Shown here piece by piece: positions 573-14,690 of a stretch of 15,260 bases of DNA (position 1 is the stretch's first letter; the number at the start of each line of letters is the position of its first letter). Under the pieces are notes generated by a model. It saw nothing but the letters and a program-made list of their open reading frames with translations, was not told the origin of the DNA and did not search any database. The DNA is taken from positions 1-15,260 of the forward strand of contig DBXZ01000018.1 in the NCBI GenBank assembly GCA_002309795.1. The letters run 5' to 3'. Position numbers and translations under genes: made by a program. The stretch comes from Bacteroidales bacterium UBA1199. Its GTDB lineage: Bacteria; Bacteroidota; Bacteroidia; Bacteroidales; UBA932.

Positions 573-1487
573 ATGAACAATACGCTGATAGATATCCGGG
601 AGATCGGCCACCGCTTCGGGTTCGTCGATTCCGGCGCCACAAAGATAGCAAGTCTGGGCGATTATTGTTCGTTTTTTGAGAAATATCTCGCCGACGGATG
701 CCAGGCCGGGATGAGCTACCTGGAGCGGAATCTGGACAAACGCGAAGATCCCGCCAAACTGGTTCCCGGCGCACAGTCGGTACTCTGCTTTCTGGCTCCC
801 TATGGAGCAGGTAGCGAAGCTCCGGACGGAAGCCGCATCTGCGGGTTCGCCCAGGGCGAAGACTATCACAAGGTCATCAAAGACCGGCTCCACGGCGTGA
901 TGGCCTGCCTCGCCGACGAGGCGGCGGCGCGGGGGCTGCCCGCTTTCAGCGGGCGTCCGTTCACGGACAGCGCGCCCCTGGCGGAGCGCGCCTGGGCCGT
1001 CCGCGCCGGCCTGGGATTTATCGGACGCAACTGTTTCCTGATTTCCCCGGAGTACGGCCTGCGGACCCTGATCGGGGCGATTGTCTGCAATATCCCCGAC
1101 GAGGCTTTCGTCCCCCATCCACCGTTGAAAGCAACCTCCTGCGGGGGATGCGGCCGCTGCACGCAGGCATGCCCCACCGGCGCCCTGCAACCATACCGGC
1201 TGGATGCCCGCAAGTGCATCTCCTACCATACCGTGGAATCGCACGACGACCTTCCGGAGGACCTGGACCGCGGGGGAAGCCTCTTCGGCTGCGACCGTTG
1301 CCTGGAGGCGTGTCCCTGGAACAGGGAGGTCCCGGCCTGGCCGGAGTTCCGCTCCCACCACGGACAGCTGGAATCGATGACCCGCGAAGACTGGAAGCAG
1401 TTGGACGAGAAGAGTTTCGACAAATCGTTCGGCTCCTCTTCCCTCACCCGCGCCGGACTCGAAAAAATCAAGAACAATGCCCGTTAA
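573..1487 (+). CDS. queG: Epoxyqueuosine reductase QueG
   Basis: This 304-residue cytosolic iron-sulfur and cobalamin enzyme reduces epoxyqueuosine to queuosine in tRNA, the last step of queuosine synthesis. The likely catalytic acid is Asp132 in FTDSAPLAERAWA, followed by GLGFIGRN (147-153), a strong family signature. Two [4Fe-4S] motifs follow: CGGCGRCTQACP (Cys190, 193, 196, 200) and CDRCLEACPWN (Cys240, 243, 247). Cys215 in RKCISYHTVE is the expected extra ligand. The length fits the short QueG form without C-terminal HEAT repeats. I chose ATG 573, although the frame stays open upstream, because residues 12-50 already align with the family's N-terminus and the upstream stretch is only antisense to the dehydrogenase. 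Its last 11 bp overlap the next gene, so the two are probably co-translated. Confidence 0.95.
   Translation: MNNTLIDIREIGHRFGFVDSGATKIASLGDYCSFFEKYLADGCQAGMSYLERNLDKREDPAKLVPGAQSVLCFLAPYGAGSEAPDGSRICGFAQGEDYHKVIKDRLHGVMACLADEAAARGLPAFSGRPFTDSAPLAERAWAVRAGLGFIGRNCFLISPEYGLRTLIGAIVCNIPDEAFVPHPPLKATSCGGCGRCTQACPTGALQPYRLDARKCISYHTVESHDDLPEDLDRGGSLFGCDRCLEACPWNREVPAWPEFRSHHGQLESMTREDWKQLDEKSFDKSFGSSSLTRAGLEKIKNNAR
640..647 (-). promoter_or_regulatory. Candidate -7 box for the threonine dehydrogenase gene, inside queG
   Basis: CAAAGATA on the plus strand reads TATCTTTG on the minus strand, a perfect TAnnTTTG box about 80 bp upstream of the dehydrogenase start. I see no good TTTG at the expected -33 distance, so this is weak. 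It overlaps queG codons 23-25. Confidence 0.3.
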
Positions 1488-2214
1488 AGACGCCAGAATC
1501 CTGATGAGGGGTTCCTGCTTCTCCACGGAGGTGGGCCGGCGCCTTCGGGAGGAGGGCTACGACGTGGTGCTCAACCCCTTCGGCATCCTTTTCAATCCGG
1601 CGTCGATCGCCCGTTCGCTGGAGCGGCTCGAAAGCCGTCAGCCTTTCACGGAAGCGGACGTGATTTCCCGCGAGGGACAGTTCTGTTCGTTCCACCACCA
1701 CGGCAGTTTCCGCCGGGAGACGCCGGAGGCCTTCCTGCTGAACGCCAACGCCGCCCTGCAGGCCGGAGCCGACGCTTTTGACGCGGCTGACACCGTGGTC
1801 CTGACGCTGGGTACGGCCTGGGTATTCCGCCACCTGGCGCGGAATATCATCGTGTCTAACTGCCACAAAGTTCCCGCCCGGGAGTTCTCCCGCGAACGGC
1901 TGAGTGTCGATGAAACCGTCGCGCTGCTCGCCCCCGTCGTGGAACGCCATCCGGAGAAACGGTGGATTCTGACGGTGAGCCCCGTCCGGCACCTGGCCGA
2001 CGGGCCGCACGGCAACCAGGTGAGCAAAGCCACGCTGGTGCTGGCCGCCGAAGAGCTCTGCGAACGGTTCCCACAGGTCTGCTATTTTCCCTCCTACGAG
2101 ATCATGGTGGAGGAACTGCGGGAATCGCGCTGGTACGCCGCAAACGGCACCCATCCTTCGCCTGAAGCCGTAGATTTAATCGCAGAGCGCTTCAGGCAAA
2201 GCCTTGGCATTTAA
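1477..2214 (+). CDS. GSCFA-domain protein, putative SGNH-like hydrolase
   Basis: The 245-residue protein carries the signature that names the family, GSCFS at 12-16, near the N-terminus. Other family blocks are LGTAWVF (111-117), SNCHK (127-131), TVSPVRHLADG (166-176) with NQVSKA (180-185), and YFPSYEI (203-209). Near the C-terminus NGTHPS (223-228) may supply the histidine of an SGNH-type active site, with Ser13 as nucleophile; that assignment is inferred from fold similarity. No signal peptide or membrane segment is visible, so it is probably cytosolic. The substrate of the family is unknown to me. The start overlaps the end of queG by 11 bp, which points to translational coupling, but I know of no functional link to queuosine synthesis. 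Confidence 0.88.
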   Translation: MPVKDARILMRGSCFSTEVGRRLREEGYDVVLNPFGILFNPASIARSLERLESRQPFTEADVISREGQFCSFHHHGSFRRETPEAFLLNANAALQAGADAFDAADTVVLTLGTAWVFRHLARNIIVSNCHKVPAREFSRERLSVDETVALLAPVVERHPEKRWILTVSPVRHLADGPHGNQVSKATLVLAAEELCERFPQVCYFPSYEIMVEELRESRWYAANGTHPSPEAVDLIAERFRQSLGI

Positions 2215-2282: not shown

Positions 2283-2317
2283 TCTTTGTGTTATCGCCTC
2301 TTTTACTGCAAGGTTTC

Positions 2318-2346
2318 TTGAAATTTGCCGGATTTGTTTAAATTTG
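2318..2346 (+). promoter_or_regulatory. Candidate promoter of the TPR regulator gene
   Basis: TAAATTTG at 2339-2346 fits the -7 box TAnnTTTG. A weaker TTG at 2318-2320 lies 18 bp upstream. The box begins 32 bp before the ATG. The bases after it (GCAAAGACCA) resemble those after the matching box of the next gene (GCAACAACCA). Confidence 0.5.
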
Positions 2347-2370
2347 CAAAGACCATTAAGAATTACCGTC

Positions 2371-4020
2371 ATGCGTAAGCTATTTCTCCTGATCGGGTTG
2401 TTTGCTCTGGCGGCTGTTTCCGGCTGCGAGAGCCGTAGGACTGTTGCCCGGCTTGATGACATCCAGTCTTTCCTGCAGGACCGGCCCGACAGCGCATTGA
2501 CGGCCTTGCGCTCCATTCCCGAATCGGAATTGTCGTCGAAACGACTCCGCGCAAGATATTCGCTGCTGAATGCGATGGCGCTTCACAAGTGCTATATTGA
2601 CACCGCTGATCTTTCCGTAATCGCGCCGGCCGACCGCTACTACGCCCGCCACGGTTCGGCCTGGGACAAGATGAAGACGCTCCACCAGAAAGGTATCATT
2701 CAAATGAACGGCGGCGACTATCAGTCTGCCGTCATCTCGCTGACCGCTGCGGCAACCTATATTGATCAAGCCGGGGACTGGTTCAATGGCGGCTTGATCT
2801 GCATCTCCCTCTGTCAGTTATACAATAAACTGCACGACAATAACGAGGAACTTTCATGGGCAATCCGGGCAGAGAACTATTACCAGAAAGTCGATAAGCC
2901 TATTTATTATCAGGATTCCAGAATCAAACATGCGATTGCCCTTAACAACCTCGGGCGTTATCAGGAAGCTGTAGATATTTACCACAGTTTACTCGATGAT
3001 GAAGAATTGGATGAAGCCAACAGACTGTCTGCAATGGCTCATCTGGCTCATACTCAGATCTATCGTCAGTACATGAATCCGCGCGAGGCAGATTCTCTCT
3101 TCACCCTCGTTATTCAAAAAACCGGCCGGCTTCCTCATCGTCAGAACTGGGGCGCTTATGCTTATGCAAGCGATTTGGTCGGCAAGAGAGAACGGGCAGA
3201 CAGAATATATGCCCAGCTGGATACAAATAACAAAGACATTTTTGGTTGGTACTCCAGATCTCTTTATGAGAGAGGTGAGTATCAAAACGCTTTTGATCAT
3301 TTATCTCTTTCTATCGCCAGTCAGACACAGATACTCAATGTGGCTCTGACACAAGCGGCTCACAAGGCCCAACGAGATCATTCGGAATCCCTTCGCAGGG
3401 AAACCGAACGGAAAGTATTCCTTCTTCGAATTCTCTATTTGATGGGGATCGCTTTAATCCTGCTGGCCGGACTTGTTATCTACCTCGTCTTTCGGCGCCG
3501 GTATGAGCGTTCCCGGCAGGATAACGAGTTGCTGGCCGAAGCATCAGAAACGCTTCTTCGGCAGATAGAAAGCTCCGAATCCGAGAAAGATCGTCAATTA
3601 GCAGCTATCCGTAAAGAGTACATTCGTATGAATCAGTCGAGTTTCAAGGAGGTCGGCCGTGTGTACGAATCGCTTGTAAGTGCTTCCCGGCGCGGAGATT
3701 CGCAGCGGGCAATTCTCTCGCAGGTCAAGAGACTCACGGAAGAGATAGCAAACGATGACAGTAGCGAATCGCACATTGAAAAGATGATAGACGCTTCGTT
3801 GGGCGGTTTGATGCATCAGTTCAGGGCGGATTATCCGCATCTTAATGAGCGGGATTATAGAATGATGTCTTTCATTATTGCCGGTTTTGAGATGTCAACC
3901 CTGGCCATTTTCTTTGGCAAGTCGTCAATCTCGGTTCCCTATACCCGCAAGTATCGCCTGAAGAAGAAGGTAGAATCGGCTTCTCCCGAGATAAGTGAGC
4001 GATATCTGCCTTATTTCTAA
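2371..4020 (+). CDS. TPR-type membrane sensor-regulator with lipobox, single transmembrane helix and C-terminal HTH
   Basis: The 549-residue protein starts at ATG 2371; an in-frame TTG at 2344 overlaps the promoter box, so I rejected it. Residues 1-19 look like a lipoprotein signal with lipobox VSGC (Cys19). Residues 25-345 are helical, with TPR-like pairs such as GDYQSAVISLTAAATYI and GRYQEAVDIYHSLL. A clear transmembrane helix spans about 350-374, followed by basic RRRYERSR and a probable coiled coil (about 378-415). Residues 491-533 resemble the LuxR-like DNA-binding end of Bacteroidota TPR regulators (LNERDYRMMSFIIAGF, then TRKYRLKKK). Inferred role: a periplasmic TPR domain senses envelope state and the cytoplasmic HTH acts on nearby genes. 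The HTH is divergent, so DNA binding is not certain. GC falls from about 60% in the first 400 bp to about 40% further on. Confidence 0.82.
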   Translation: MRKLFLLIGLFALAAVSGCESRRTVARLDDIQSFLQDRPDSALTALRSIPESELSSKRLRARYSLLNAMALHKCYIDTADLSVIAPADRYYARHGSAWDKMKTLHQKGIIQMNGGDYQSAVISLTAAATYIDQAGDWFNGGLICISLCQLYNKLHDNNEELSWAIRAENYYQKVDKPIYYQDSRIKHAIALNNLGRYQEAVDIYHSLLDDEELDEANRLSAMAHLAHTQIYRQYMNPREADSLFTLVIQKTGRLPHRQNWGAYAYASDLVGKRERADRIYAQLDTNNKDIFGWYSRSLYERGEYQNAFDHLSLSIASQTQILNVALTQAAHKAQRDHSESLRRETERKVFLLRILYLMGIALILLAGLVIYLVFRRRYERSRQDNELLAEASETLLRQIESSESEKDRQLAAIRKEYIRMNQSSFKEVGRVYESLVSASRRGDSQRAILSQVKRLTEEIANDDSSESHIEKMIDASLGGLMHQFRADYPHLNERDYRMMSFIIAGFEMSTLAIFFGKSSISVPYTRKYRLKKKVESASPEISERYLPYF

Positions 4021-4031
4021 CATTCCTTGCA

Positions 4032-4062
4032 GCCCGGTGATAAATAAATAATCACCGAGGGC
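4032..4062 (+). repeat. Hairpin in the 4021-4182 intergenic region
   Basis: CGGTGAT (4035-4041) pairs with ATCACCG (4051-4057) around the loop AAATAAATA. GCC (4032-4034) and GGC (4060-4062) can extend the stem past a small bulge. No T-run follows, so it is a weak terminator or an mRNA 3'-end structure. The rest of the gap holds a CTTTTTTAAAAAG palindrome near 4122-4134 and the promoter box at 4151. Confidence 0.4.
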
Positions 4063-4150
4063 GCAAAATCTTATATGCAAACCTCTGTATGGCCGATTTT
4101 CATCAGTCGACCGGTGATGCGCTTTTTTAAAAAGGTATAAGGGAATAAGG

Positions 4151-4158
4151 TATATTTG
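4151..4158 (+). promoter_or_regulatory. Candidate -7 box upstream of the first beta-barrel gene
   Basis: TATATTTG fits TAnnTTTG exactly and begins 32 bp before the ATG at 4183, the same distance as in the regulator gene. The -33 region is only a T-run (4123-4128) at wider spacing. No comparable box lies in the 27 bp before the next gene, so 4183-5529 is probably one transcript. Confidence 0.5.
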
Positions 4159-4182
4159 CAACAACCAATGTGACACACCCAT

Positions 4183-4872
4183 ATGCTGAAAAGTATTATA
4201 AGATCAAGCCTGCTCTGGCTTCTGCTTTTTCTTCCTGTCCATGCTGGAGCTCAGGTTGATTACAGTATTCGTACAGGGATTAACATGTCTAATCAAATCC
4301 CTCATTCGGGCGGGCTGACAGGTATTCAAGTCGGCATTAACATTGCCTTGGAGGGTGAGCATTTCTTTAATCCGTACTTTGGGGCGGGATTCGGGTTATC
4401 CTTAAATGAAAAAGGAGAAAACTGGATAGATGTTAATCTCGCAACAAATCTTCAAGGAATCAAGCGCACCCAGTTGTATTATGCTGAATTACCGCTAATG
4501 GCTCTGGTAAAATATGCATTTGAAGTTGGTCGCAACAAAATCGCCTTTATCGGAAAGGCGGGATTCTACTTTTCTGATTTAATACAGGGCAATGCGGTTC
4601 TGGTGTTTACGGATTCATCTAACAAGACGGTAGATATCTCTGGCCAAGGTTTGTATGAAGATTCCAGTGGGAAACTGCGCATCTCTCCCAGAGTGTCGCC
4701 TTTAGATATGGGGTATACCCTCGGCGCCGAAATCCGTTTTAATCAATTCGGTCTTGGCTTTCGCTACCAATATGGATTAACTTCTATCGGATATGACGAG
4801 TATTATGGGCCCAGACGGTTTAATCAGACCTATGGCGTTGATCTCCGTTATATATTTTCTTGGGGTAATTAA
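4183..4872 (+). CDS. Outer-membrane beta-barrel protein (PorT-like / OMP_b-brl type)
   Basis: The 229-residue protein has a Sec signal peptide (basic start, hydrophobic core at 9-19, probable cleavage after AGA at 21-23). The mature part alternates polar and hydrophobic residues and is rich in Gly, Tyr and Phe, as expected of outer-membrane beta-strands: YFGAGFGLSLNEKG, YYAELPLMALVKYAF, KIAFIGKAGFYFSD, YTLGAEIRFNQFGLGFRY. The turn region YYAELPLM followed by a short strand is typical of the PorT-like barrel family common in Bacteroidota, usually of 8-10 strands. No enzyme motif is visible; the ligand or partner is unknown. It heads the envelope block after the TPR regulator, with its own promoter box, and lies 27 bp before a lipoprotein gene. 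A barrel is well supported; its role is not. Confidence 0.78.
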   Translation: MLKSIIRSSLLWLLLFLPVHAGAQVDYSIRTGINMSNQIPHSGGLTGIQVGINIALEGEHFFNPYFGAGFGLSLNEKGENWIDVNLATNLQGIKRTQLYYAELPLMALVKYAFEVGRNKIAFIGKAGFYFSDLIQGNAVLVFTDSSNKTVDISGQGLYEDSSGKLRISPRVSPLDMGYTLGAEIRFNQFGLGFRYQYGLTSIGYDEYYGPRRFNQTYGVDLRYIFSWGN

Positions 4873-4899
4873 TTGAACAGTTTCCAGTAGGGGGATACT

Positions 4900-5529
4900 A
4901 TGACTTTCACTAAAATCAAACGCATGATCGGCGCCATGGCTGTTTCTGTCGTGGCTCTTCTTCTGACCTCCTGTCAAGAGCCTTTAGGAAGGGGAGTGAC
5001 AACGGTGTTTGAACATCGTGACTGCCAGTCCGTATTATTGTTGCAGCCTGAACAGGATGGGGATGGACGGGCTTTCTTGAGAATACTGACAGATGGTATA
5101 CTCCAAGAATCCAATAAAGAGATAGAATCCCAGATTCTTGAATATAATCATCGAAAAGCTTCCGATACAGGTTCAGCGATGGATTTGATTGTCTATCACA
5201 CGAACGTTTGCACATCCTTGCAAATCGAGGCATCTCTTCCAGTTTTCGGACAAGAAGCCGGTGAGGATCTTTCCGGATTCTTTTTACTTGACAAAAACGG
5301 GCCGGGCTATATCATAAAGTCTAATAAAGAACTGGTGGGCAGCATCCTTGGATACTCATTGGCGCATGGGGAAATAACGTTATCCGAATGGCTTTCCCTA
5401 TCACCATTGATGCTTCATGAGTTGTATTTAAAGTCGAAGCAGCCCGCTGTCCTCCCTCCCGGCATTGTTTTCACGGTCAAGGTGACGCTGGATGGCGAGA
5501 AAGAATTGGAAGCGACGGCTACGTTCTAG
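4900..5529 (+). CDS. Putative lipoprotein of unknown family
   Basis: The 209-residue protein has a lipoprotein signal: basic KIKR, a hydrophobic stretch, and lipobox LTSC with Cys25. The residue after the cysteine is Gln, so a periplasmic or surface location cannot be read with confidence. An AGGGGG stretch about 6 bp before ATG 4900 can serve as ribosome binding site, unusual here, and supports this start. The mature part shows mixed alpha/beta character. A distinctive central segment (about 124-150, with GFFLLDKNGPGYII and LVGSILGY) is followed by the helix-like EWLSLSPLMLHELYLKSK, and the C-terminus is beta-like. I recognise no catalytic motif and assign no family. It follows the barrel gene by 27 bp, so it may act with that barrel at the outer membrane. 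Confidence 0.72.
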   Translation: MTFTKIKRMIGAMAVSVVALLLTSCQEPLGRGVTTVFEHRDCQSVLLLQPEQDGDGRAFLRILTDGILQESNKEIESQILEYNHRKASDTGSAMDLIVYHTNVCTSLQIEASLPVFGQEAGEDLSGFFLLDKNGPGYIIKSNKELVGSILGYSLAHGEITLSEWLSLSPLMLHELYLKSKQPAVLPPGIVFTVKVTLDGEKELEATATF

Positions 5530-5534
5530 TGCCC

Positions 5535-5565
5535 TTTGATTTAATTGATAGTTTCATTATATTTG
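5535..5565 (+). promoter_or_regulatory. Consensus Bacteroidota promoter before the second lipoprotein gene
   Basis: TTTG (5535-5538), exactly 19 bp, then TATATTTG (5558-5565) is a full match to TTTG-N19-TAnnTTTG. The expected transcript start is near 5572, leaving a leader of about 50 nt. It would drive the lipoprotein at 5626 and the barrel at 6414 apart from the upstream genes. Confidence 0.7.
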
Positions 5566-5625
5566 TTTATCCGGTCAGCCCTGGTCATAAGACATATTAT
5601 AACAACTAATTAATACACAAGATTA

Positions 5626-6387
5626 ATGAATTGTTTACGATTGTTCTGCATTGTTGCCGCAGCCAGTTTGTTTCTTTCTTCGTGTATCCGACCTGATGAA
5701 AAACCGAAAGTAGAAACGGTCGAGGTCGATTATAATTTCGTTGTGAGGCTCGATTATATGTACGTTTACAGAGGAATTGCTCCGAGTCATAATACAGGAG
5801 AGGATACCAGTTATTTGTTTATTCCCCAGCGCTGCAAGTTTACCAGCGAGCAGGTGCTTGACGGGACACAGCAGCGGCTCATCAATCAATGGACGAAAGA
5901 GGCAAATTCATTCTACGGTGCTGATTTAAGGTATAAGGGTACTCAATACTATGTGGCTGTGCAAATGCTGACAGAGAGCTATAGCAAAGTCCTAATCGGT
6001 GCTTATGACTGGCGAGCAAGAAGCCTTGATGTGATCGCCTTGACGGACTGGGATGCGGAGCATCCTGCGGGTTCCTCCGTCAAAGACAAATTCTGTCTGA
6101 TGTATAGACAGAGTGACAGGTTGATCACTGTGCCGCTGACGTCTTTCAAATACTCAGATCTGTTGTTTTCTGACAATATGCCCGTATCTTCTCATTTATG
6201 GCCGGTCCAACCCTCCTGCAATGGAGGCCTGGTCCTCCGTCTGATCAATCCTCTCGATCGGAGTCATTATGAAACGACAGCGCTGGAAGTTCGTATGCAA
6301 ACTGATTTCGGAACACAATATTGTGCAAGAGCCTCGGACACGGAATTGCAGGCAGGATTGAATAATCTCGACCGATTTGAGTTTTAA
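5626..6387 (+). CDS. Putative lipoprotein of unknown function
   Basis: The 253-residue protein has a lipoprotein signal with lipobox LSSC (Cys20), followed by an acidic and basic linker (RPDEKPKVETVEVD). The mature part looks beta-rich with many aromatic residues (NFVVRLDYMYVYRG, YYVAVQMLTESYSKVLIGAYDW). Four more cysteines lie in the mature part, which could form disulfides in the periplasm. The layout of signal, short linker and beta-rich body slightly recalls fimbrial assembly lipoproteins of the FimB/Mfa2 kind, but their usual cysteine-proline start is missing and I do not make that call. It has its own consensus promoter and is followed after 26 bp by a small barrel gene, so the pair is probably co-transcribed. 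It is AT-rich (38% GC in the line at 5881). Confidence 0.7.
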   Translation: MNCLRLFCIVAAASLFLSSCIRPDEKPKVETVEVDYNFVVRLDYMYVYRGIAPSHNTGEDTSYLFIPQRCKFTSEQVLDGTQQRLINQWTKEANSFYGADLRYKGTQYYVAVQMLTESYSKVLIGAYDWRARSLDVIALTDWDAEHPAGSSVKDKFCLMYRQSDRLITVPLTSFKYSDLLFSDNMPVSSHLWPVQPSCNGGLVLRLINPLDRSHYETTALEVRMQTDFGTQYCARASDTELQAGLNNLDRFEF

Positions 6388-6413
6388 TCATATAATCAAA
6401 TTGTTTCGTAGTT

Positions 6414-6941
6414 ATGAAAAAGATTCTTTGTTTCTTGTTTGTAGTCGTTCTCTTTTCAGCATTCGGAGTTCAGCGGGCGAATGCTGAAGGTCATCTCCAG
6501 CAGAGTGTTCAATTGACTCACTTTGGCGCTTATTGGAAACCTCACCTTTCGGTCGATTACTCCATAGGCTGGCGGTTTAATCCGTACTTCTACGCAGGTG
6601 TTGCCACCGGTGCGCACCTTTTGCATGAATATGATTATGACTCGAGCACAGGAAGTAAGACTGATTACGGTTGGCCGCTGGCACTTCCGTTGTTTGCGGA
6701 TGTCGTAGGCTATCTGCCGGTCCCGAATAAGAACAGCGCCTTTTATCTGGGTGCAGAGCTCGGCGGCATGTACGTTTTCAGCCAGACGCAGAAACCCAAC
6801 CCCCTGTGGCTTCTCAATGCCAAAACGGGCTTTGATATCGCCATCAACGACCGGATGGGTATCACGGTGGGTATCAAACTGGTAACGACGGGACGGGTCG
6901 ATTACTCCGGTCTGGCGCTCACGACCGGTTTCCGCTTCTAA
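6414..6941 (+). CDS. Small outer-membrane beta-barrel protein
   Basis: The 175-residue protein begins with a clear Sec signal peptide (MKKILCFLFVVVLFSAFG, probable cleavage after ANA at 22-24). The mature part of about 150 residues shows amphipathic strands: QLTHFGAYWKPHLSVDYSIGW, YFYAGVATGAHLL, SAFYLGAELGGMYVF, RMGITVGIKLV. It ends in LALTTGFRF, whose final Phe fits the C-terminal beta-signal read by the BAM machinery. The size fits a barrel of about eight strands. Function is unknown; it may be structural or bind a partner lipoprotein. It is the last gene of the envelope block, 26 bp after the lipoprotein gene, and ends just before a strong terminator. GC rises from about 45% in its first half to 53-58% in its second. 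Confidence 0.76.
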   Translation: MKKILCFLFVVVLFSAFGVQRANAEGHLQQSVQLTHFGAYWKPHLSVDYSIGWRFNPYFYAGVATGAHLLHEYDYDSSTGSKTDYGWPLALPLFADVVGYLPVPNKNSAFYLGAELGGMYVFSQTQKPNPLWLLNAKTGFDIAINDRMGITVGIKLVTTGRVDYSGLALTTGFRF

Positions 6942-8261: not shown

Positions 8262-8292
8262 CAAAAGTACGTATTTCCGTTGAGATTACAAA
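8262..8292 (-). promoter_or_regulatory. rocD: Consensus promoter of rocD
   Basis: On the minus strand TTTG (8292-8289), exactly 19 bp, then TACTTTTG (8269-8262) matches TTTG-N19-TAnnTTTG. The transcript would start near 8255, about 25 nt before the rocD ATG. The -33 element begins one base past the hydE stop codon (8286-8288), inside the hydE coding region. Confidence 0.72.
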
Positions 8293-9365
8293 CCGGTTTG
8301 TGGAGTTTTACCCAGAAAATGTCTGGAATCGCCCCAGCGGCCGTAGCCTACCGTAATGCGCCCGTTCTCGAGGCTCTCGCCAAGCATCAGCGTCTTGACC
8401 AGCAGTGTTTTGCGGTCGTATAGATTGTATTTGGCCATCTCCTCTTCCGGGGTGATGTTGGGCATGATCACGTTGGCGCCGGCAAGTACGCCTTTTTCGC
8501 GTCCCCGCGGATCGAGCACCTCCAGTGCGGTGGCGGCTGCAATGTTGATGTCGGGCATCAGCAGGCGCAGCAGCGCTATCATCTTGAGTCCGAGCGCGAA
8601 ACGTTCCTTCTCGGACGGGAAAGGGGCGCCGGCGAGGGTCAGCGGCGTATCGGGGTGCGGATTGTACGGGCCCATCCCGATCATCGGCGCGTCGAACCGC
8701 TTGTAGAAGAGCAGGTCGTCGGCCAGATCGGCCGCCGTCTGGAAGGGGAGTCCGATCATCGCGCCCGTGCCGGCCTGGTAGCCGATCGCCTTCAGGTCGC
8801 AGAGCGCCTCCATCCGCCGCTCGTAGCTGTGCAGCGCGTCGTGCGGATGAATCTTGTAGTAAAGGTCGGGATTGGTGGATTCGATCCGCAGCAGGTAGCG
8901 GTGCGCTCCGGCCGCGAACCACTCTTCGTAGACTTCGCGCGGCTGTTCGCCCAGCGAGAGGGTGATGCCCAGCGGACGCCCGCCCTCCGATGCGGTGGGC
9001 AGTGCCTTGATGGCTTTGAGCAGCCGGGTGATCTTACTCACAAAGGCCGCGTCGGTGCGCTCGCCGCCCTGAATCACCACCGATCCGTAGCGGCGTCCGG
9101 CGGCCAGTGCAGCCACGCGCAGCACCTCCTCGTCGGAGAGTTCGTAGCGCTGGCAGGCAAGGTCGTGCCGGATGCCGCAGTAGAGGCAGTTCTTGGTGCA
9201 GATGTTCGATATTTCAATCAGCCCGCGCAGATAGACGTCGGTCCCGATATGGGCCACTTTCACCCGGTAGGCCTCCTGCAGCAGCGCCTCGTTGAACGCA
9301 GGGTCGGTGCATTCAAGGGCGGCAATCAGCCCTTCGCGGTCCAGGGAGAGGTCGTCGAGCGTCAT
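8286..9365 (-). CDS. hydE: [FeFe]-hydrogenase H-cluster radical SAM maturase HydE
   Basis: The 359-residue radical SAM enzyme takes part in building the diiron subcluster of [FeFe]-hydrogenase, with HydG and HydF. The SAM cluster motif CTKNCLYCG (Cys56, 60, 63) follows RGLIEISNI, the typical HydE lead-in. Other family blocks are VVIQGGE, a SLGEQ segment, YLLRIESTNPDLYYKIHP (where a radical SAM barrel binds substrate), and TGAMIGLPFQTAADLADDLLF. The C-terminus (ALEVLDPRGREKGVLAGANVIMPN) also fits. The start at 9365 lies 3 bp after the hydF stop, so hydF and hydE form one transcript with hydF first. A biotin-synthase-like or PylB-like paralogue is the alternative, but the hydF neighbour makes HydE nearly certain. 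Confidence 0.94.
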   Translation of the reverse strand: MTLDDLSLDREGLIAALECTDPAFNEALLQEAYRVKVAHIGTDVYLRGLIEISNICTKNCLYCGIRHDLACQRYELSDEEVLRVAALAAGRRYGSVVIQGGERTDAAFVSKITRLLKAIKALPTASEGGRPLGITLSLGEQPREVYEEWFAAGAHRYLLRIESTNPDLYYKIHPHDALHSYERRMEALCDLKAIGYQAGTGAMIGLPFQTAADLADDLLFYKRFDAPMIGMGPYNPHPDTPLTLAGAPFPSEKERFALGLKMIALLRLLMPDINIAAATALEVLDPRGREKGVLAGANVIMPNITPEEEMAKYNLYDRKTLLVKTLMLGESLENGRITVGYGRWGDSRHFLGKTPQTGL

Positions 9366-9368
9366 CGG

Positions 9369-10562
9369 TTATGGAAGCAGGGGCTTCAGGGCCCGCTGGT
9401 AAATGCCTGTGAGATAGGAGATGGCCATGCCGTAGTTGACCACGGGAACCCCGGCTTCGATCACTGCTTTCACGCGGTTCTGCAACTGGCGCGCGGTGAC
9501 CATGCAGCCGCCGCACTGGATGGCCAGCGCGTAACGCGACAGGTCGCCCGGATCGTCCAGCCCGCTCACCATTTCGAATTCCAACTGTTTGCCGGTGTAT
9601 TTGCGGATCAGGGCCGGCAGTTTCACGCGGCCTATGTCTTCGCAGTTGGCGTGGTGGGTGCACGATTCCAGCATCAGGATGCGGTCGCCGTCTTTCAGGC
9701 GGTCCAGCGTCCCGATTCCGGCACGGTAGGCGTCAAAGCTGCCCATGCTCCGGGCCAGCAGCATGCTGAAAGAGGTGAGGGGAATGCCCTCCGGCACGAT
9801 GGCCGCCACGCGGGCGAATACCTGGCTGTCGGTGACCACCAGGGCTACGCGGCTGCCGTTCTCTTTCAGGTAACCGTCCAATTCCTCCGGCTGCAGCACC
9901 GTGGCGACTCCGCCGCCGTCCAGGATGGCGCGGATGGCGTTCACCTGCGGCAGGATCAGCCGGCCCTGCGGCGCTTCGCTGTCGATGGGACAGACCAGCA
10001 CGATCTGCCCTCCCTTGCGCACCAGCCCTTCGAACATCGGGCGCTCGATCACTTCGGCGCCGGAGAGGGCTTCGCGGATGGCGGCGGTGAGCCGGTCGCG
10101 GTCTTCCGCTCCGGCCGTGCAGGCATACGCCACGGGTTCGGTCTTGTATTCGGCGTTCAGCCGCTTGCGAAGGTCGTCCTTCAGCGGTTCCAGGTCGCTC
10201 TTGTTGTGTACGAGTACCAGCGGGACGTTCAGTTTCTGAAGCAGTTCCGCCACGCGTGCTGCCCCTTCCGGAAAACGGTTCCCGGCAAAGACCAGGATGC
10301 CCAGGTCTACCTGGCGTGCGGCCGCCAGGCTCTTGGCCACCCGTTCGCGGCCCAGCGCGCCTCCGTCGTCGTCCAGTCCGGCGGTGTCGATCACCGTGCA
10401 GACGCCGATTCCAGGCAGCTCGATCCGCTTGCGGACCGGGTCGGTCGTAGTGCCGGCCACATCGGACACGATGGCCACCTGCTGGCCGGTCAACGAATTG
10501 ATCAGCGAACTTTTACCTACGTTCCGGTCTCCGAAGATCCCGATGACTTTGGGCTGCGACAT
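9369..10562 (-). CDS. hydF: [FeFe]-hydrogenase H-cluster maturation GTPase HydF
   Basis: The 397-residue scaffold protein carries the diiron precursor and hands it to apo-hydrogenase. The N-terminal GTPase domain is complete: P-loop GDRNVGKSS (11-19), GTT (37-39), DTAG (59-62) and NKSD (120-123). A dimerisation region follows (about 175-275), then the cluster domain with CTH (Cys301, His303) and CGGC (Cys350, Cys353). The family motif is CxH-x(44-53)-HCxxC; here the spacing fits, but the second histidine is Gln349 (codon CAG), a one-base change from His. This position is known to vary or be exchangeable in some HydF proteins, so activity is still likely. It is first in the hydF-hydE unit, with a promoter box near 10595. 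HydG and the hydrogenase itself are not in the window. Confidence 0.95.
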   Translation of the reverse strand: MSQPKVIGIFGDRNVGKSSLINSLTGQQVAIVSDVAGTTTDPVRKRIELPGIGVCTVIDTAGLDDDGGALGRERVAKSLAAARQVDLGILVFAGNRFPEGAARVAELLQKLNVPLVLVHNKSDLEPLKDDLRKRLNAEYKTEPVAYACTAGAEDRDRLTAAIREALSGAEVIERPMFEGLVRKGGQIVLVCPIDSEAPQGRLILPQVNAIRAILDGGGVATVLQPEELDGYLKENGSRVALVVTDSQVFARVAAIVPEGIPLTSFSMLLARSMGSFDAYRAGIGTLDRLKDGDRILMLESCTHHANCEDIGRVKLPALIRKYTGKQLEFEMVSGLDDPGDLSRYALAIQCGGCMVTARQLQNRVKAVIEAGVPVVNYGMAISYLTGIYQRALKPLLP

Positions 10563-10647: not shown

Positions 10648-11505
10648 ATGAAGAAGTTACTCGTCTCTCTTGTCTCGCTGTTTCTCTGTTTCACCTCTTC
10701 CGCGGCCGGCCGTTTGGTGGCCGACTCGCTGGAGAGCCGGATCCTGGGCACAACCGTCAAATGCAACGTCTATCTGCCGGAGGGTTTCGACAAATCCGCG
10801 GATTACTATCCGGTCATCTACCTGCTTCACGGCCTGACCGACACCTGGGAAGGCTGGCAGCAGCGGGGCCACATGAAAGGCGTGGCGGACGAACTGATGG
10901 CTTCGGGCGAATCTGCCCGCGCCGTCATCATCATGCCCAATGCGGGCCATCCCAACCCCGTTGAGGTCTGGAACGGCTATTTCAACATGCCGGGATGGAA
11001 CTACGAAGACTTCTTCTTCCAGGAGTTGATACCGACGCTTGAAGCCCGCTACCGTTGCGGCGGCTCCAAAGGGCAGCGCGCCGTCATGGGCCTCTCGATG
11101 GGCGGCGGCGGCAGCGTGGTCTACAGCCAGCGCCATCCCGACTGCTTCTCGAGCTGCTATTCGATGAGCGGCTGGCTGGACAACAAGTTCGCAGAGGTCG
11201 GGAATGCCGACGGCAAGCAGGATAAGTTCACGATTCTCTGTGCCGCCGTCCGCGACCATTCCGCGCTGGATTTCATGGACAATGCTTCGCAGGAAACCGT
11301 CGACGCCCTGAAGACCGTGGCCTGGTTCATAGACTGCGGCGACGACGACTTCCTCCTGAAACTCTCCGTAGATTTTTATTATAAGATGAGAGCACGCGGC
11401 GTGAAGGCCGAATTCCGCGTCCGCAACGGCGCCCATACCTGGGAATACTGGCACCAGGCGCTCCGCCTGGCCCTTCCCTTCGCCTCCCGGAACTTTTCCC
11501 GCTAG
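10648..11505 (+). CDS. Secreted alpha/beta-hydrolase, esterase D / acetyl-xylan or feruloyl esterase type
   Basis: The 285-residue protein starts at ATG 10648, with AAGGA about 9 bp upstream; the frame's upstream extension runs antisense to hydF and was dropped. A Sec signal peptide covers about residues 1-20 (MKKLLVSLVSLFLCFTSSAA). The mature part is a putative-esterase fold: NVYLPEGF and PVIYLLHGLTDTW (oxyanion region), the nucleophile elbow GLSMGG with Ser150, an acid in DCGDDDFL (Asp232 to 234), and the catalytic His263 in NGAHTWEYW. This family includes carbohydrate esterases that remove acetyl or feruloyl groups from plant polysaccharides, S-formylglutathione hydrolases and mycolyltransferases. 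The signal peptide argues for an extracytoplasmic ester substrate, perhaps glycan-linked, but no polysaccharide-utilisation genes lie nearby. Its stop codon overlaps that of the convergent thiamine pyrophosphokinase gene. Confidence 0.9.
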   Translation: MKKLLVSLVSLFLCFTSSAAGRLVADSLESRILGTTVKCNVYLPEGFDKSADYYPVIYLLHGLTDTWEGWQQRGHMKGVADELMASGESARAVIIMPNAGHPNPVEVWNGYFNMPGWNYEDFFFQELIPTLEARYRCGGSKGQRAVMGLSMGGGGSVVYSQRHPDCFSSCYSMSGWLDNKFAEVGNADGKQDKFTILCAAVRDHSALDFMDNASQETVDALKTVAWFIDCGDDDFLLKLSVDFYYKMRARGVKAEFRVRNGAHTWEYWHQALRLALPFASRNFSR

Positions 11506-12140
11506 TCGGCCCAGTAGATCAGGACGGGAGCGGGGTGTGAAAGCGTGAGGGTGAAACGGTCGGCAGAAGCCACGTTGAGGGTGGCTTTCCAGAGCGAATC
11601 GAAGACCACGTCGTCGGTGGGATAGACCAGCCCGTCGGCGTGGACTTTCAAGGTGGCGTCAAAGCTAAAAATCGAAATCTCCTGACCGGGCCGGGCGGGC
11701 AGGGTGGCCGTATCCGGAATCACCTCGAAGTGTCCGTAATCGGACCACATCTCCACGCGGCAGCCGGTACCGGCCAGGGCTGCTGCATAATCCGCCAGCA
11801 GCGAGATATTTCCCAGCGTATGGTCTTCGCGCCGCCCGGTGGCACCCAGAATGACAATCCGTTGCGGGCAGTAGGTCAGCGCCCGGCGGAACGCCTTGGT
11901 CTGGTCGTTGCACTCCTGGTCGCGGTCGTGGAACAGCCGCGCAGCATAACGCTCCCGGAAACCGGCGTCCAGCGAATCCAGGTCGCCTACGATCTCATCC
12001 GGCTCAAACCCGTGCGCCACCGCCGCAGCCGCCGCCCCGTCGCAGCAGAGCAGCACATCCGCCTCCCGCAACATCTGCAGGCAGCGCCCGGAAGCGGGGA
12101 AATCCCCCTGGGCCAGAATGACCACGGTTTTCGGATTCAT
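11502..12140 (-). CDS. thiN: Thiamine pyrophosphokinase
   Basis: The 212-residue cytosolic enzyme transfers pyrophosphate from ATP to thiamine, giving thiamine diphosphate. Family blocks are clear: an N-terminal CDGAAAA stretch (33-39), VGDLDSL (51-57), DQECNDQTKA (74-83) and the nucleotide-site motif GATGRREDHTLGNI (99-112). The C-terminal half is beta-rich (HFEVIPDTATLPARPGQEISIFSF), as in the thiamine-binding domain. Length is normal. The start lies 12 bp after the stop of the LptG-Fmt gene, so it is probably last in an alaS-lptG/fmt-thiN operon. No transporter gene and no TPP riboswitch is apparent. Its TAG stop and that of the convergent esterase share the palindrome CTAG (11502-11505), so no intergenic terminator exists here. 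Confidence 0.93.
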   Translation of the reverse strand: MNPKTVVILAQGDFPASGRCLQMLREADVLLCCDGAAAAAVAHGFEPDEIVGDLDSLDAGFRERYAARLFHDRDQECNDQTKAFRRALTYCPQRIVILGATGRREDHTLGNISLLADYAAALAGTGCRVEMWSDYGHFEVIPDTATLPARPGQEISIFSFDATLKVHADGLVYPTDDVVFDSLWKATLNVASADRFTLTLSHPAPVLIYWAD

Positions 12141-12152
12141 GAGACTTATCTA

Positions 12153-14690
12153 TTAAACGAACTTACTGCCTTCGCCCTCGCGGAAGCCCAGCAGGAAACT
12201 GGCGATATCCATCCGCTTGCGTCCGGCCGCCTGCAGTTCCAAGATCCGGATCGCATCGCGTCCGCAACGCACCTGCAGCCAGGATTTTCCATCGGTAGTA
12301 ATAGCACCAGGACCCGTAAGGCTGAGCGACGCTTGCGTAGCGAGGATTTTTTCATCCGAGCGCAGCAAGACGTCCGAAGCCGGAGGGTCCGAGCAGAGCG
12401 AGACACCGGAGGCCGAAGGGTCCGATTCTGCAGTCGCTGTGTCTCGAACGACATACGCCTCATAGATCTTCACCGGAACCTCCTCGCCCGAAGCCGTTAC
12501 CAGCGTAGCGGCAGCGGCGGGATAGGGACTCAGGCCCCGGATCAGGTTATTGACCTCGCGGGCATTGCGGCTCCAGTCAATGTGCGCGAGCTCCCGCGTC
12601 AGTTTCGGAGCCGGACGCAGCTTGACGTGTTCCACATCCTGCGCCTGCGGCCTGGTCCGGTGGTCGCGGATCTCCTCCGCGGTCTGGACCACGAGCTCCG
12701 AGCCCATCTCCATCAACGTATCGTGCAGCGATCCGGCATTGTCGTAATCCTCAATCAGATAACTCTTCTGCTTGAGAATCCGCCCGGTATCGATCTGCTC
12801 GTCGATCATAAAGGTCGTGACGCCCGTCTGCCGTTCCCCGTTGATCAGCGCCCAGTTGATGGGGGCGGCGCCGCGGTACTGCGGCAGCAGGGATGCGTGC
12901 AGGTTGAAGGTGCCCAGACGCGGCATGGCCCAGACTTCGCGCGGCAGCATCCGGAAGGCCACCACCACAAAGAGGTTGGCCTTGTACGAAGCCAGCTGGG
13001 CGAGGAACTCCGGATCGCGCAACTTCTCCGGCTGCAGCACCGGAATGCCGTGTTCCACCGCGTAGCGCTTGACGGCGCTCTCGTTCACCTTGAGTCCGCG
13101 GCCGCTCGGCTTGTCGGGCACGGTCACCACCGCACGCACGTCGAATCCGGCCTTGAGCAGCGCATCAAGCGGGCCGCAGGCGAACTCCGGCGTACCCATA
13201 TAGACGATCCGGATGCGGCCGAAATCCTTGCGTAAGAGGTTGCGGACCTTGAAATAGCCGCGTTTTATCCACTTGCCCAGATTCTTGAAGAAGACCTTGT
13301 AGCTGTCGAAGTTGACCAGCGAAGAGTCCTTGGTGGAACGGTAGGTCAGGTAGATGCCGATCGGCAGCAGGATGGCCGTGGAGATGAAGGTTCCTTCGAA
13401 CGGGGTGATGGTTCCCTCGCGGGCCAGCTTCTTGCCGGTGATATCGATAATGTAGTAAATCAGGAAGAAGAAGATCGAGATGATTACCGGCGTACCGAAT
13501 CCGCCCTTGCGGATAATCGCGCCCAGCGGTCCCCCGATAAAGAAGAAGATGAAGCAGGCAATGCTGAGCGTGAACTTGCGGTACCATTCGATATCCGTGC
13601 GCCGCAGCGGATCTACATAGTGGTAGTCTTCGCGCGCGCAGTTCTCGATCTGGTCGATCATGACCGGCAGGTTGCTGGCGGCATTGCGCAGGGCCGTTCT
13701 GCGCGTATCCAGGGGCAGGTTGTCCAGCAGCGTATCGGTCGCGAGGTTGCCCCGCTGCTTTTCCGCACGCCAGGTGGAATCCAGCTGGTAATTGAAATCG
13801 AGCGACGAGGTGCGGATCAGGCGCTGCCGCTGGAAAATGCGCAGCGAATCGTATTTGTGGGAGATGGAATCGCGGTCGTGGCTGAGTGCCCGGAGCCCTT
13901 TGGCCATCACCTCGTCGCCGAAACGGTCGTCGTCGGAACGGGTGAAGGTATAGTTGTCCAGGCAGATGATCAGCTCCTGTTCATTGAACTTCAGCCGGTT
14001 CAGATCCAGCGTCGTGTCACGGTAACTCATCCGGTTGGTCTCCTGGTAGGAGCAGCCGTCGTAGAGGTGGAACACCAGGTTCTGCTTGTCGGGCGAGATG
14101 GCCATCCGGCCCGAGTCGGCCAGCGTGATGCAGGTGTTGCCGTTGCGGGCGGTGTGGTCGTAGATGATGAGTTTGTGCATCATCTTGGTCCGGTCGTCGC
14201 GGCTCTCAATCCGGAGAATGTAGCCGTCAATGCCGTCGTAGAAGGTGCCGGTCGGTATCTTGATCTCCTCTTTGGTCTTGCGGATGTCGTCGCGCAGCGT
14301 GTAGATCTTGCTGTAGGAGACCGGAATCAGGTTGTTGGCCGCGAAGAACGCACCGATACTGATAATCACGGAGACCCAGATCAGCGGCTTGAGGATGCGC
14401 GGCAGCGAGATGCCGGCCGCCTTCATGGCCAGCAGCTCGTTCTTTTCGCCCATACCGCCCAGGGTCATGATGGAGGCGAGCAGCGTGGCCAGCGGCAAGG
14501 CCATGGGAATCAGCGTGCAGGCCGCCCAGCCCAGGAATTCCAGAATCACGCCCAAACCGAGTCCCTTCCCCACCAGTTCGTCGATATAGACCCAGAGGAA
14601 CTGCAGTGCCAGGGTGAATATGACGAGAAAGAAGGTGACGAAGAACGGTCCTATGAAGGACTTGATCAGGAACCGGTCGAGCTTCTTCAT
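12153..14690 (-). CDS. Fusion of LptF/LptG-family LPS export permease with methionyl-tRNA formyltransferase
   Basis: One uninterrupted frame encodes 845 residues. Residues 1 to about 490 are a YjgP/YjgQ-family permease: three transmembrane helices at about 12-36, 48-76 and 98-122, a periplasmic beta-domain to about 370, and three more helices at about 372-394, 400-418 and 432-450. LptF and LptG form the inner-membrane part of the LptB2FG LPS extractor. Residues from about 491 are Fmt, which formylates Met-tRNA: RIVYMGTPEFA, NLHASLLPQYRGAAP (Asn596, His598), IDTG (Asp634) and the C-terminal tRNA-binding domain (SRNAREVNNLIRGLSPYP; ILELQAAGRKRM). No ATG, GTG or TTG lies in frame at the junction except Met498, which would remove the first Fmt strand. 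Both LptG termini are cytosolic, so the topology is workable. An in-frame tandem repeat sits at 756-789. Flanking gaps are 18 bp (alaS) and 12 bp (thiN). Confidence 0.9.
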   Translation of the reverse strand: MKKLDRFLIKSFIGPFFVTFFLVIFTLALQFLWVYIDELVGKGLGLGVILEFLGWAACTLIPMALPLATLLASIMTLGGMGEKNELLAMKAAGISLPRILKPLIWVSVIISIGAFFAANNLIPVSYSKIYTLRDDIRKTKEEIKIPTGTFYDGIDGYILRIESRDDRTKMMHKLIIYDHTARNGNTCITLADSGRMAISPDKQNLVFHLYDGCSYQETNRMSYRDTTLDLNRLKFNEQELIICLDNYTFTRSDDDRFGDEVMAKGLRALSHDRDSISHKYDSLRIFQRQRLIRTSSLDFNYQLDSTWRAEKQRGNLATDTLLDNLPLDTRRTALRNAASNLPVMIDQIENCAREDYHYVDPLRRTDIEWYRKFTLSIACFIFFFIGGPLGAIIRKGGFGTPVIISIFFFLIYYIIDITGKKLAREGTITPFEGTFISTAILLPIGIYLTYRSTKDSSLVNFDSYKVFFKNLGKWIKRGYFKVRNLLRKDFGRIRIVYMGTPEFACGPLDALLKAGFDVRAVVTVPDKPSGRGLKVNESAVKRYAVEHGIPVLQPEKLRDPEFLAQLASYKANLFVVVAFRMLPREVWAMPRLGTFNLHASLLPQYRGAAPINWALINGERQTGVTTFMIDEQIDTGRILKQKSYLIEDYDNAGSLHDTLMEMGSELVVQTAEEIRDHRTRPQAQDVEHVKLRPAPKLTRELAHIDWSRNAREVNNLIRGLSPYPAAAATLVTASGEEVPVKIYEAYVVRDTATAESDPSASGVSLCSDPPASDVLLRSDEKILATQASLSLTGPGAITTDGKSWLQVRCGRDAIRILELQAAGRKRMDIASFLLGFREGEGSKFV
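12324..12425 (-). repeat. In-frame 33-bp tandem repeats inside the Fmt C-terminal domain
   Basis: On the minus strand, units at 12425-12393 and 12392-12360 (33 bp each, 25 of 33 positions equal by my count) are followed by a diverged 36-bp unit at 12359-12324. All start with TCGGA. The encoded units are SDPSASGVSLC, SDPPASDVLLR and SDEKILATQASL (residues 756-789). They interrupt the Fmt C-terminal domain between IYEAYVV and GPGAI, where related proteins have only a short turn. Confidence 0.8.

What the first reader, a model, noticed from the sequence alone, without database searches (positions are those of the whole stretch)
12153..14690. Inner-membrane LPS export permease fused in frame to methionyl-tRNA formyltransferase
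Seen: one frame without a stop covers a full six-helix LptF/LptG-type permease and a full Fmt. Around the junction (residues 478-497, near 13200-13259) no ATG, GTG or TTG offers a separate Fmt start; Met498 would remove the first beta-strand. Known: LptG termini face the cytosol, so Fmt would be placed at the membrane in the right compartment. Inference: either translation initiation is tied to the membrane or LPS machinery, or the protein is cut after synthesis, or the fusion is neutral gene joining. I do not know of a described LptG-Fmt fusion.
Basis: partly seen in the sequence, partly recalled or inferred. Interest (0 to 1): 0.8.

Follow-up and report, generated by a model that had tools for sequence, protein, structure and literature searches.

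The report
LptF permease fused to Fmt enzyme
In one family of Bacteroidales bacteria, the membrane protein LptF, which helps export lipopolysaccharide, and the enzyme Fmt, which prepares the initiator tRNA for protein synthesis, are often one long protein; the joining seems to have happened more than once and to have lasted, which ties together two important and seemingly unrelated jobs.

Summary
Window 12153-14690 (-) is one 845-aa frame with a complete LptF/LptG permease and a complete methionyl-tRNA formyltransferase. It is no assembly slip: at least 79 of 199 genomes sampled from one Bacteroidales family have the same frame by the listing, and in 76 of 76 fused genomes tested it holds the only Fmt over cut-off. 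One correction: the permease half is LptF-type; a separate LptG-like gene exists. Unfused relatives have lptF and fmt abutting or overlapping behind alaS. Trees need three or four changes and reject one fused clade. Neighbouring, equally tight joints are never fused (0 of 115, 0 of 95). The linker is under purifying selection (dN/dS 0.24). ATG starts for a free Fmt are nearly gone in the window's clade (1 of 43) but not in another (13 of 21). Most likely it is a bifunctional protein holding Fmt at the inner membrane on LptF's tail; whether the chain stays whole is untested. No description was found in the papers held.

The parts
12153..14690 (-). fused lptF-fmt gene, 845 aa, one open frame
13338..14675 (-). 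LptF/LptG permease domain, residues 6-451, LptF-type; coupling-helix Glu85 and Gly93
   Evidence: pattern from PMC5082905 (passages)
13215..13337 (-). tail and linker, residues 452-492, basic; predicted helix about 461-485
12684..13211 (-). Formyl_trans_N, residues 494-669, with Asn596, His598, Asp634 and Arg531
12183..12605 (-). Formyl_trans_C, residues 696-836, with an insertion of roughly 35 aa
14709..15260 (-). C-terminal part of alaS (DHHA1 domain; alanyl-tRNA synthetase by recall), cut by the window end; ends 18 nt upstream of lptF-fmt
11502..12140 (-). thiN, thiamine diphosphokinase, starts 12 nt downstream of fmt

Best explanation
It is a genuine bifunctional protein, LptF-Fmt. The N-terminal half is the LptF-type membrane subunit of the LPS exporter LptB2FG, pairing with a separately encoded LptG. 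The C-terminal half is the cell's only methionyl-tRNA formyltransferase. It arose when lptF and fmt, neighbours behind alaS, lost the stop between them and then the fmt start codon. The chain stays whole, LptF's basic tail runs on into the first strand of Fmt, and Fmt works tethered to the inner membrane, one copy per LptF. Shown by sequence: one frame, intact key residues, sole Fmt in relatives, conservation, more than one change of state on the tree. Inferred: that the chain is not cut, that both halves are active at once, that the tail faces the cytosol (recalled), and that tethering is more than tolerated.
For: Three complete domains in one frame. The 120 listed homologues all have the three domains. 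84 of 130 picked loci fused, 79 after dropping 5 duplicates. One Fmt over cut-off, the fused frame, in 10 of 10 and 66 of 66 fused genomes. Two LptF/LptG-family proteins, one fused and one free, in 10 of 10. A separate full-length LptG-like match in 61 of 66, fragments in 2, none in 3. Peptide deformylase in 10 of 10. Fmt Asn, His and Asp in 76 of 77 aligned fused rows (1 gap each), loop Arg in 77 of 77, LptF Glu85 and Gly93 in 77 of 77. Linker dN/dS 0.24, bootstrap 0.16-0.35, over 23 independent pairs. ATG 3-15 codons before the Fmt motif in 1 of 43 window-clade rows against 42 of 46 unfused. lptF|fmt joined in 79 of 125 loci, alaS|lptF in 0 of 115, fmt|thiN in 0 of 95, with similar tight gaps. 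One fused clade rejected, p-AU 4.5e-74. Precedent: a def-fmt fusion of Exiguobacterium complements an E. coli mutant (PMC12690207, section 7).
Against: No expression, protein size or activity data. The window's own genome is not held, so 'only Fmt' and 'separate LptG' are shown for relatives only. No free permease match passes the LptG equivalog cut-off (0 of 66), and the fused half misses the LptF cut-off. In the 21-row fused clade an in-frame ATG 3-15 codons before the motif remains in 13 rows, and any start codon within 20 codons remains in 55 of 82 fused loci overall, so a separate Fmt may be started inside the gene in some of them. The model's pTM is 0.48, so how the halves sit together is unknown. 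Linker dN/dS is higher than that of the domains.
Confidence: 0.75

Rival explanations
1. Neutral gene joining: the tight lptF-fmt spacing made stop loss easy, the fused protein is merely tolerated, and tethering has no benefit. (This can be true together with the best explanation of what the protein is.)
For: Unfused relatives have lptF and fmt 60 nt apart or less, measured to the Fmt match, or overlapping, in 42 of 46 loci. A basic tail is already present in unfused LptF. Linker dN/dS (0.24) is higher than in the domains (0.10-0.15).
Against: Equally tight neighbouring joints are joined in 0 of 115 and 0 of 95 loci. Three or four changes of state in one family, against 1 of 395 in the phylum sample, the centre genome itself. 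All 43 rows of the window's clade remain fused. But the tolerance of the other joints to fusion is unknown, and related rows are not independent.
Confidence: 0.35
2. The fused chain is cut after synthesis in the tail and releases soluble Fmt.
For: The tail and linker span about 40 residues in the window, with model confidence under 50 at residues 455-459.
Against: Fmt's first strand starts about 9 residues after the predicted linker helix ends, with a short helical turn between, and the linker sequence differs between clades; I saw no shared site but made no search for protease sites.
Confidence: 0.12
3. A free Fmt is also made by internal translation initiation within the fused gene.
For: In-frame ATG 3-15 codons before the Fmt motif in 13 of 21 rows of one other fused clade and in 4 of 12 rows of another.
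Against: Window: no start codon in 30 codons. Window clade: ATG in 1 of 43, any start codon in 11 of 43 at -3 to -15; the GTG codons seen there mostly code for valines in or near the first strand.
Confidence: 0.08
4. An assembly or sequencing error removed a stop codon.
For: Read data for the window are not available.
Against: The same frame in many separate genomes and contigs, with linker codons evolving under protein constraint.
Confidence: 0.01

Closest known systems
def-fmt fusion of Exiguobacterium (PMC12690207, section 7 read)
   Same: A complete Fmt fused in frame to another complete protein; reported functional in E. coli.
   Different: The partner is peptide deformylase, an enzyme of the same pathway; here it is a membrane LPS-export subunit.
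Methionyl-tRNA formyltransferase (TIGR00460; PDB 1fmt, 2fmt)
   Same: Over the family cut-off, key residues aligned, same fold.
   Different: No free N-terminus; attached to a membrane protein; an insertion in the C-terminal domain of the window copy.
LptF of LptB2FG (PDB 6mit_F and others)
   Same: Best solved permease match by sequence and the only permease chains among the 50 fold matches listed; coupling-helix Glu and Gly present.
   Different: Extra helices between the periplasmic strands and the fourth long membrane helix in the model, Fmt at the C-terminus, and a score below the LptF equivalog cut-off.
ArnA (PDB 1z7e)
   Same: A related formyltransferase domain in a two-enzyme protein.
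   Different: ArnA's domain formylates a sugar nucleotide and its partner is a soluble dehydrogenase (recalled).

Membership tests
Methionyl-tRNA formyltransferase (Fmt) | NCBIfam fmt equivalog score over cut-off | tested here: met
   239.7 against 201.5 bits
Methionyl-tRNA formyltransferase (Fmt) | N- and C-terminal domains both present | tested here: met
   PF00551 and PF02911 over cut-off
Methionyl-tRNA formyltransferase (Fmt) | Catalytic Asn, His, Asp and tRNA-loop Arg (roles recalled) | tested here: met
   Aligned to 1fmt N108, H110, D146, R42; kept in 76, 76, 76 and 77 of 77 fused rows, the misses being one gap
Methionyl-tRNA formyltransferase (Fmt) | Formylates initiator Met-tRNA | not testable with these tools
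   needs an assay
LptF/LptG permease family (PF03739) | Pfam family score over cut-off along the whole profile | tested here: met
   233.1 against 27.9 bits, profile 1-353 of 353
LptF/LptG permease family (PF03739) | Coupling-helix pattern with conserved Glu and Gly between helices 2 and 3 | tested here: met
   Glu85 and Gly93 in 77 of 77; pattern from PMC5082905 passages
LptF equivalog (TIGR04407) | Score over the curated cut-off | tested here: not met
   144.9 against 230 bits. Called LptF-type by best match only, not filed as a TIGR04407 member
LptG equivalog (TIGR04408), as in the finding's title | Score over the curated cut-off, or better match to LptG than to LptF | tested here: not met
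   97.9 against 240 bits; PDB LptF 43.7 against 26.9 bits for the best G chains (that those chains are LptG is recalled from the chain letter)
def-fmt type Fmt fusion | Partner is peptide deformylase | tested here: not met
   Partner is PF03739; deformylase lies at other places in the 10 genomes tested

The most novel reading that the evidence does not exclude
Repeated, selected tethering of the translation-initiation enzyme Fmt to the LPS exporter, so that initiator-tRNA formylation is set by, or reports on, the number and place of exporters: a physical link between envelope building and protein synthesis that evolved several times in one family.
Probability: 0.12. Interest if true: 0.85.

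Novelty: new variant of a known kind. Interest (0 to 1): 0.55.

Why it matters
Fmt is normally thought of as a free soluble enzyme (recalled). A group in which the only Fmt is the tail of a membrane transporter subunit makes it directly testable whether initiator-tRNA formylation needs a freely diffusing enzyme, and whether LptB2FG tolerates or uses a large cytoplasmic appendage. One family in which separate, in-phase and fused states all exist today also gives a natural series for studying how operon neighbours become one protein. Database names follow one half or the other: 'methionyl-tRNA formyltransferase' in NCBI entries, 'lipopolysaccharide export system permease protein' in some JGI ones, so half of the protein goes unnamed.

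Tried and rejected
Assembly error: rejected for the family. LptG identity: rejected in favour of LptF-type. A spare free Fmt: none over cut-off in 76 of 76 fused genomes; weaker formyltransferase matches of 33-65 bits are present in many of them and were not identified further. One origin of the fusion: a single fused clade is rejected by the AU test, but the number of changes is three or four, and one gain with several losses was not formally excluded. Fusion outside the family: 4 of 393 in the order sample, all four also drawn in the family sample, and 1 of 395 in the phylum sample, the centre genome itself; those match lists are capped at the weak end, and other phyla were not searched for the fusion. 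G026 in the order sample has the two genes in phase with stops between. Docking of the halves: pTM 0.48, not interpreted. Papers: searches gave none; two gave one paper each (seen in the listing only, each term once, off topic by title); others gave general papers, of which passages of PMC5082905 and PMC5548808, and passages plus section 7 of PMC12690207, were read.

My own slips: the alignment for the structure job left out Met1, so A1 and the model are numbered one lower; a first residue check used those numbers and was repeated corrected; the first amphipathicity count used too short a stretch and scored only 4 fused rows, and was redone on 79.

Full report
Observation. The - strand frame 14690 to 12153 encodes 845 aa. 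It holds a complete LptF/LptG permease (residues 6-451), a tail and linker (452-492), and both domains of methionyl-tRNA formyltransferase (494-669, 696-836). Fmt passes the curated fmt cut-off. In the 30 codons before Met498 there is no ATG, GTG or TTG in frame.

Which permease. The fused half matches LptF chains best among solved structures (6mit_F 43.7 bits; the best G chains 26.9 bits; that these are LptG is recalled from the chain letter) and LptF best in NCBIfam (144.9 against 97.9 bits for LptG), though under both equivalog cut-offs. The free 365-366-aa permease of fused relatives matches LptG best: 47.1 against 31.9 bits for the one protein compared with solved structures, and 185-194 against 117-122 bits for the three compared with NCBIfam, again under the cut-offs. 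Among the 50 fold matches listed for the model, the permease chains are LptF (6mit_F rank 46, 6mjp_F rank 50), after formyltransferases. So I call the fusion LptF-type, with LptG separate. Ten of 10 fused genomes have two LptF/LptG-family proteins, one fused and one free. With the LptG model, 61 of 66 further fused genomes show a separate full-length match, 2 a fragment, 3 none apart from the fused gene; none of the 66 passes the LptG cut-off.

How common. The 120 listed homologues (of 3981 found) all carry the three Pfam domains. The script found the Fmt motif beyond residue 300 in 116 of them; the other 4 are pieces of 474-514 aa. Of the 12 loci found in the genome collection 10 are fused and two match only over the permease half; all are metagenome-assembled genomes titled Bacteroidales, Bacteroidia or Candidatus Cacconaster. 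In samples: at least 79 of 199 genomes of the family have one frame running from LptF into Fmt. I counted this by hand from the listing; four of the 79 are matches over part of the protein (G465, G575, G499, G570), and six of the 79 were not fetched (G505, G563, G585, G547, G575, G499). In the order sample it is 4 of 393, all four also drawn in the family sample. In the phylum sample it is 1 of 395, the centre genome itself. The lists are capped at the weak end. The tool does not name the family; Bacteroidales is from record titles and the taxonomy entry of Cacconaster.

Only copy. In fused genomes there is one Fmt over cut-off and it is the fused frame: 10 of 10 and 66 of 66. Weaker matches of 33-65 bits occur beside it in many of them and were not identified. 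Peptide deformylase is present in 10 of 10, so the formylation cycle is probably in use. The aligned catalytic Asn, His and Asp are kept in 76 of 77 fused rows each (one gap), the loop Arg in 77 of 77, and the coupling-helix Glu and Gly of LptF in 77 of 77 (2 of 79 fused rows were dropped for N letters). The roles of the Fmt residues are recalled; the coupling-helix pattern is from passages of PMC5082905.

Origin. Of 162 sequences examined, window included, 84 were fused, 46 separate and 32 held only one of the two genes. These were picked from search lists, so the numbers are not rates. Of the 46 separate ones, 42 have a gap of 60 nt or less as measured to the Fmt match, or an overlap, and 35 have fmt in another frame. 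Gene order, from short flanks for most loci: alaS lies upstream in 83 of 84 fused and 37 of 46 separate loci; all of alaS, lptF, fmt and thiN in that order in 64 fused (window and duplicates included) and 33 separate. Against a fully conserved row: among the ten long fused loci L001-L010, alaS is found in 10 but thiN in only 3, and the window's two nearest relatives, L001 and L002, show none; one fused locus has thiN on the other strand. A tree of 125 rows (79 fused, 46 separate) needs four changes of state, three of them forced by well-supported branches. Holding the fused rows together is rejected (p-AU 4.5e-74). A tree of 55 rows with a mixture model, thinned to under 72% identity and without two long-branch rows, needs three. 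Of the 19 separate rows nested inside the 97-row set that holds 78 of the fused ones, 14 have fmt out of phase, which a simple re-broken fusion would not give, so separate gains are the simpler reading; losses are not formally excluded.

Is the joining special. The neighbouring joints are as tight (median gap 10 nt for alaS|lptF and for fmt|thiN; 8 nt for unfused lptF|fmt) yet were joined in 0 of 115 and 0 of 95 loci, against 79 of 125 for lptF|fmt (rows without a readable neighbour, 10 and 30, left out). This argues against joining by opportunity alone, with two limits: rows are related, and the other proteins may not tolerate fusion. The last 20 linker codons have dN/dS 0.24 (bootstrap 0.16-0.35) over 23 independent pairs, against 0.13 for LptF, 0.10 for Fmt-N and 0.15 for Fmt-C. 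So the linker is read as protein and constrained, less than the domains are.

Start codons. ATG 3-15 codons before the Fmt motif: 1 of 43 rows in the window's clade, 4 of 12 in the 14-row clade, 13 of 21 in the 21-row clade, 0 of 1 in the lone L126, and 42 of 46 in separate genes. Counting GTG and TTG too: 11 of 43, 7 of 12, 19 of 21, 0 of 1 and 46 of 46 (two fused rows without the motif are not counted). Counting every position within 20 codons: 55 of 82 fused loci, duplicates included, and 46 of 46 separate. So an ATG start for an independent Fmt is all but gone in the window's clade, while internal starts are not excluded in the 21-row clade.

Structure. The AlphaFold model (71 sequences, mean pLDDT 78.7, pTM 0.48) has long helices that fit six membrane spans, a helix at about 461-485 in the linker and the Fmt fold after it. 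Unfused LptF already has a basic tail (net charge of its last 30 residues +4.4 on average, 46 rows; +6.1 for 30 linker residues in 79 fused rows), so the fusion seems to extend an existing tail. The place of Fmt relative to LptF is not determined.

Mechanism. Best supported: one chain, LptF in the exporter with LptG and LptB, and Fmt active on its cytoplasmic side. Shown: frame, conservation, sole copy in relatives, intact residues, recurrence. Inferred: no cleavage, simultaneous activity, cytosolic tail (recalled), benefit. A def-fmt fusion in Exiguobacterium complements E. coli (PMC12690207, section 7), so Fmt tolerates at least one other fusion partner.

Novelty. Searches turned up no paper describing this fusion in the library held; most subscription papers and all bioRxiv preprints are missing from it. 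The protein is in databases under one half's name or the other. I rate it a new variant of a known kind: known domains in a recurrent, lasting combination for which I found no description.

Noticed in passing
12355-12425 (-): A 33-nt tandem repeat of 2.2 copies sits in an insertion of roughly 35 aa in the Fmt C-terminal domain, in a stretch of very low model confidence; the close homologue P0001 has a longer stretch there too, partly alike, and P0002, P0009 and P0033 are shorter there.
   Followed up: partly
8286-10562 (-): A radical-SAM protein with a weak BATS match (HydE-like, by recall) next to a HydF-type GTPase, suggesting maturation of an [FeFe]-hydrogenase (function recalled).
   Followed up: no
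about 2300-6900: A stretch of lower G+C (about 0.41-0.54 against roughly 0.6 around it) with several frames of unknown function and a beta-barrel domain at 4183-4872; may be a later arrival.
   Followed up: no
579-2214 (+): A QueG-type epoxyqueuosine reductase and a GSCFA-family protein with overlapping frames.
   Followed up: no
related genomes, e.g. G549:C46, G509:C16, G137:C3: In these the separate LptG-like gene lies 2-3 kb from the fused lptF-fmt; how general this is was not counted.
   Followed up: no
L086, L108, L120, L121, L122, L123, L124, L156: Unfused relatives in which lptF and fmt are in the same frame with only a stop and a few codons between: possible intermediates toward fusion.
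   Followed up: partly
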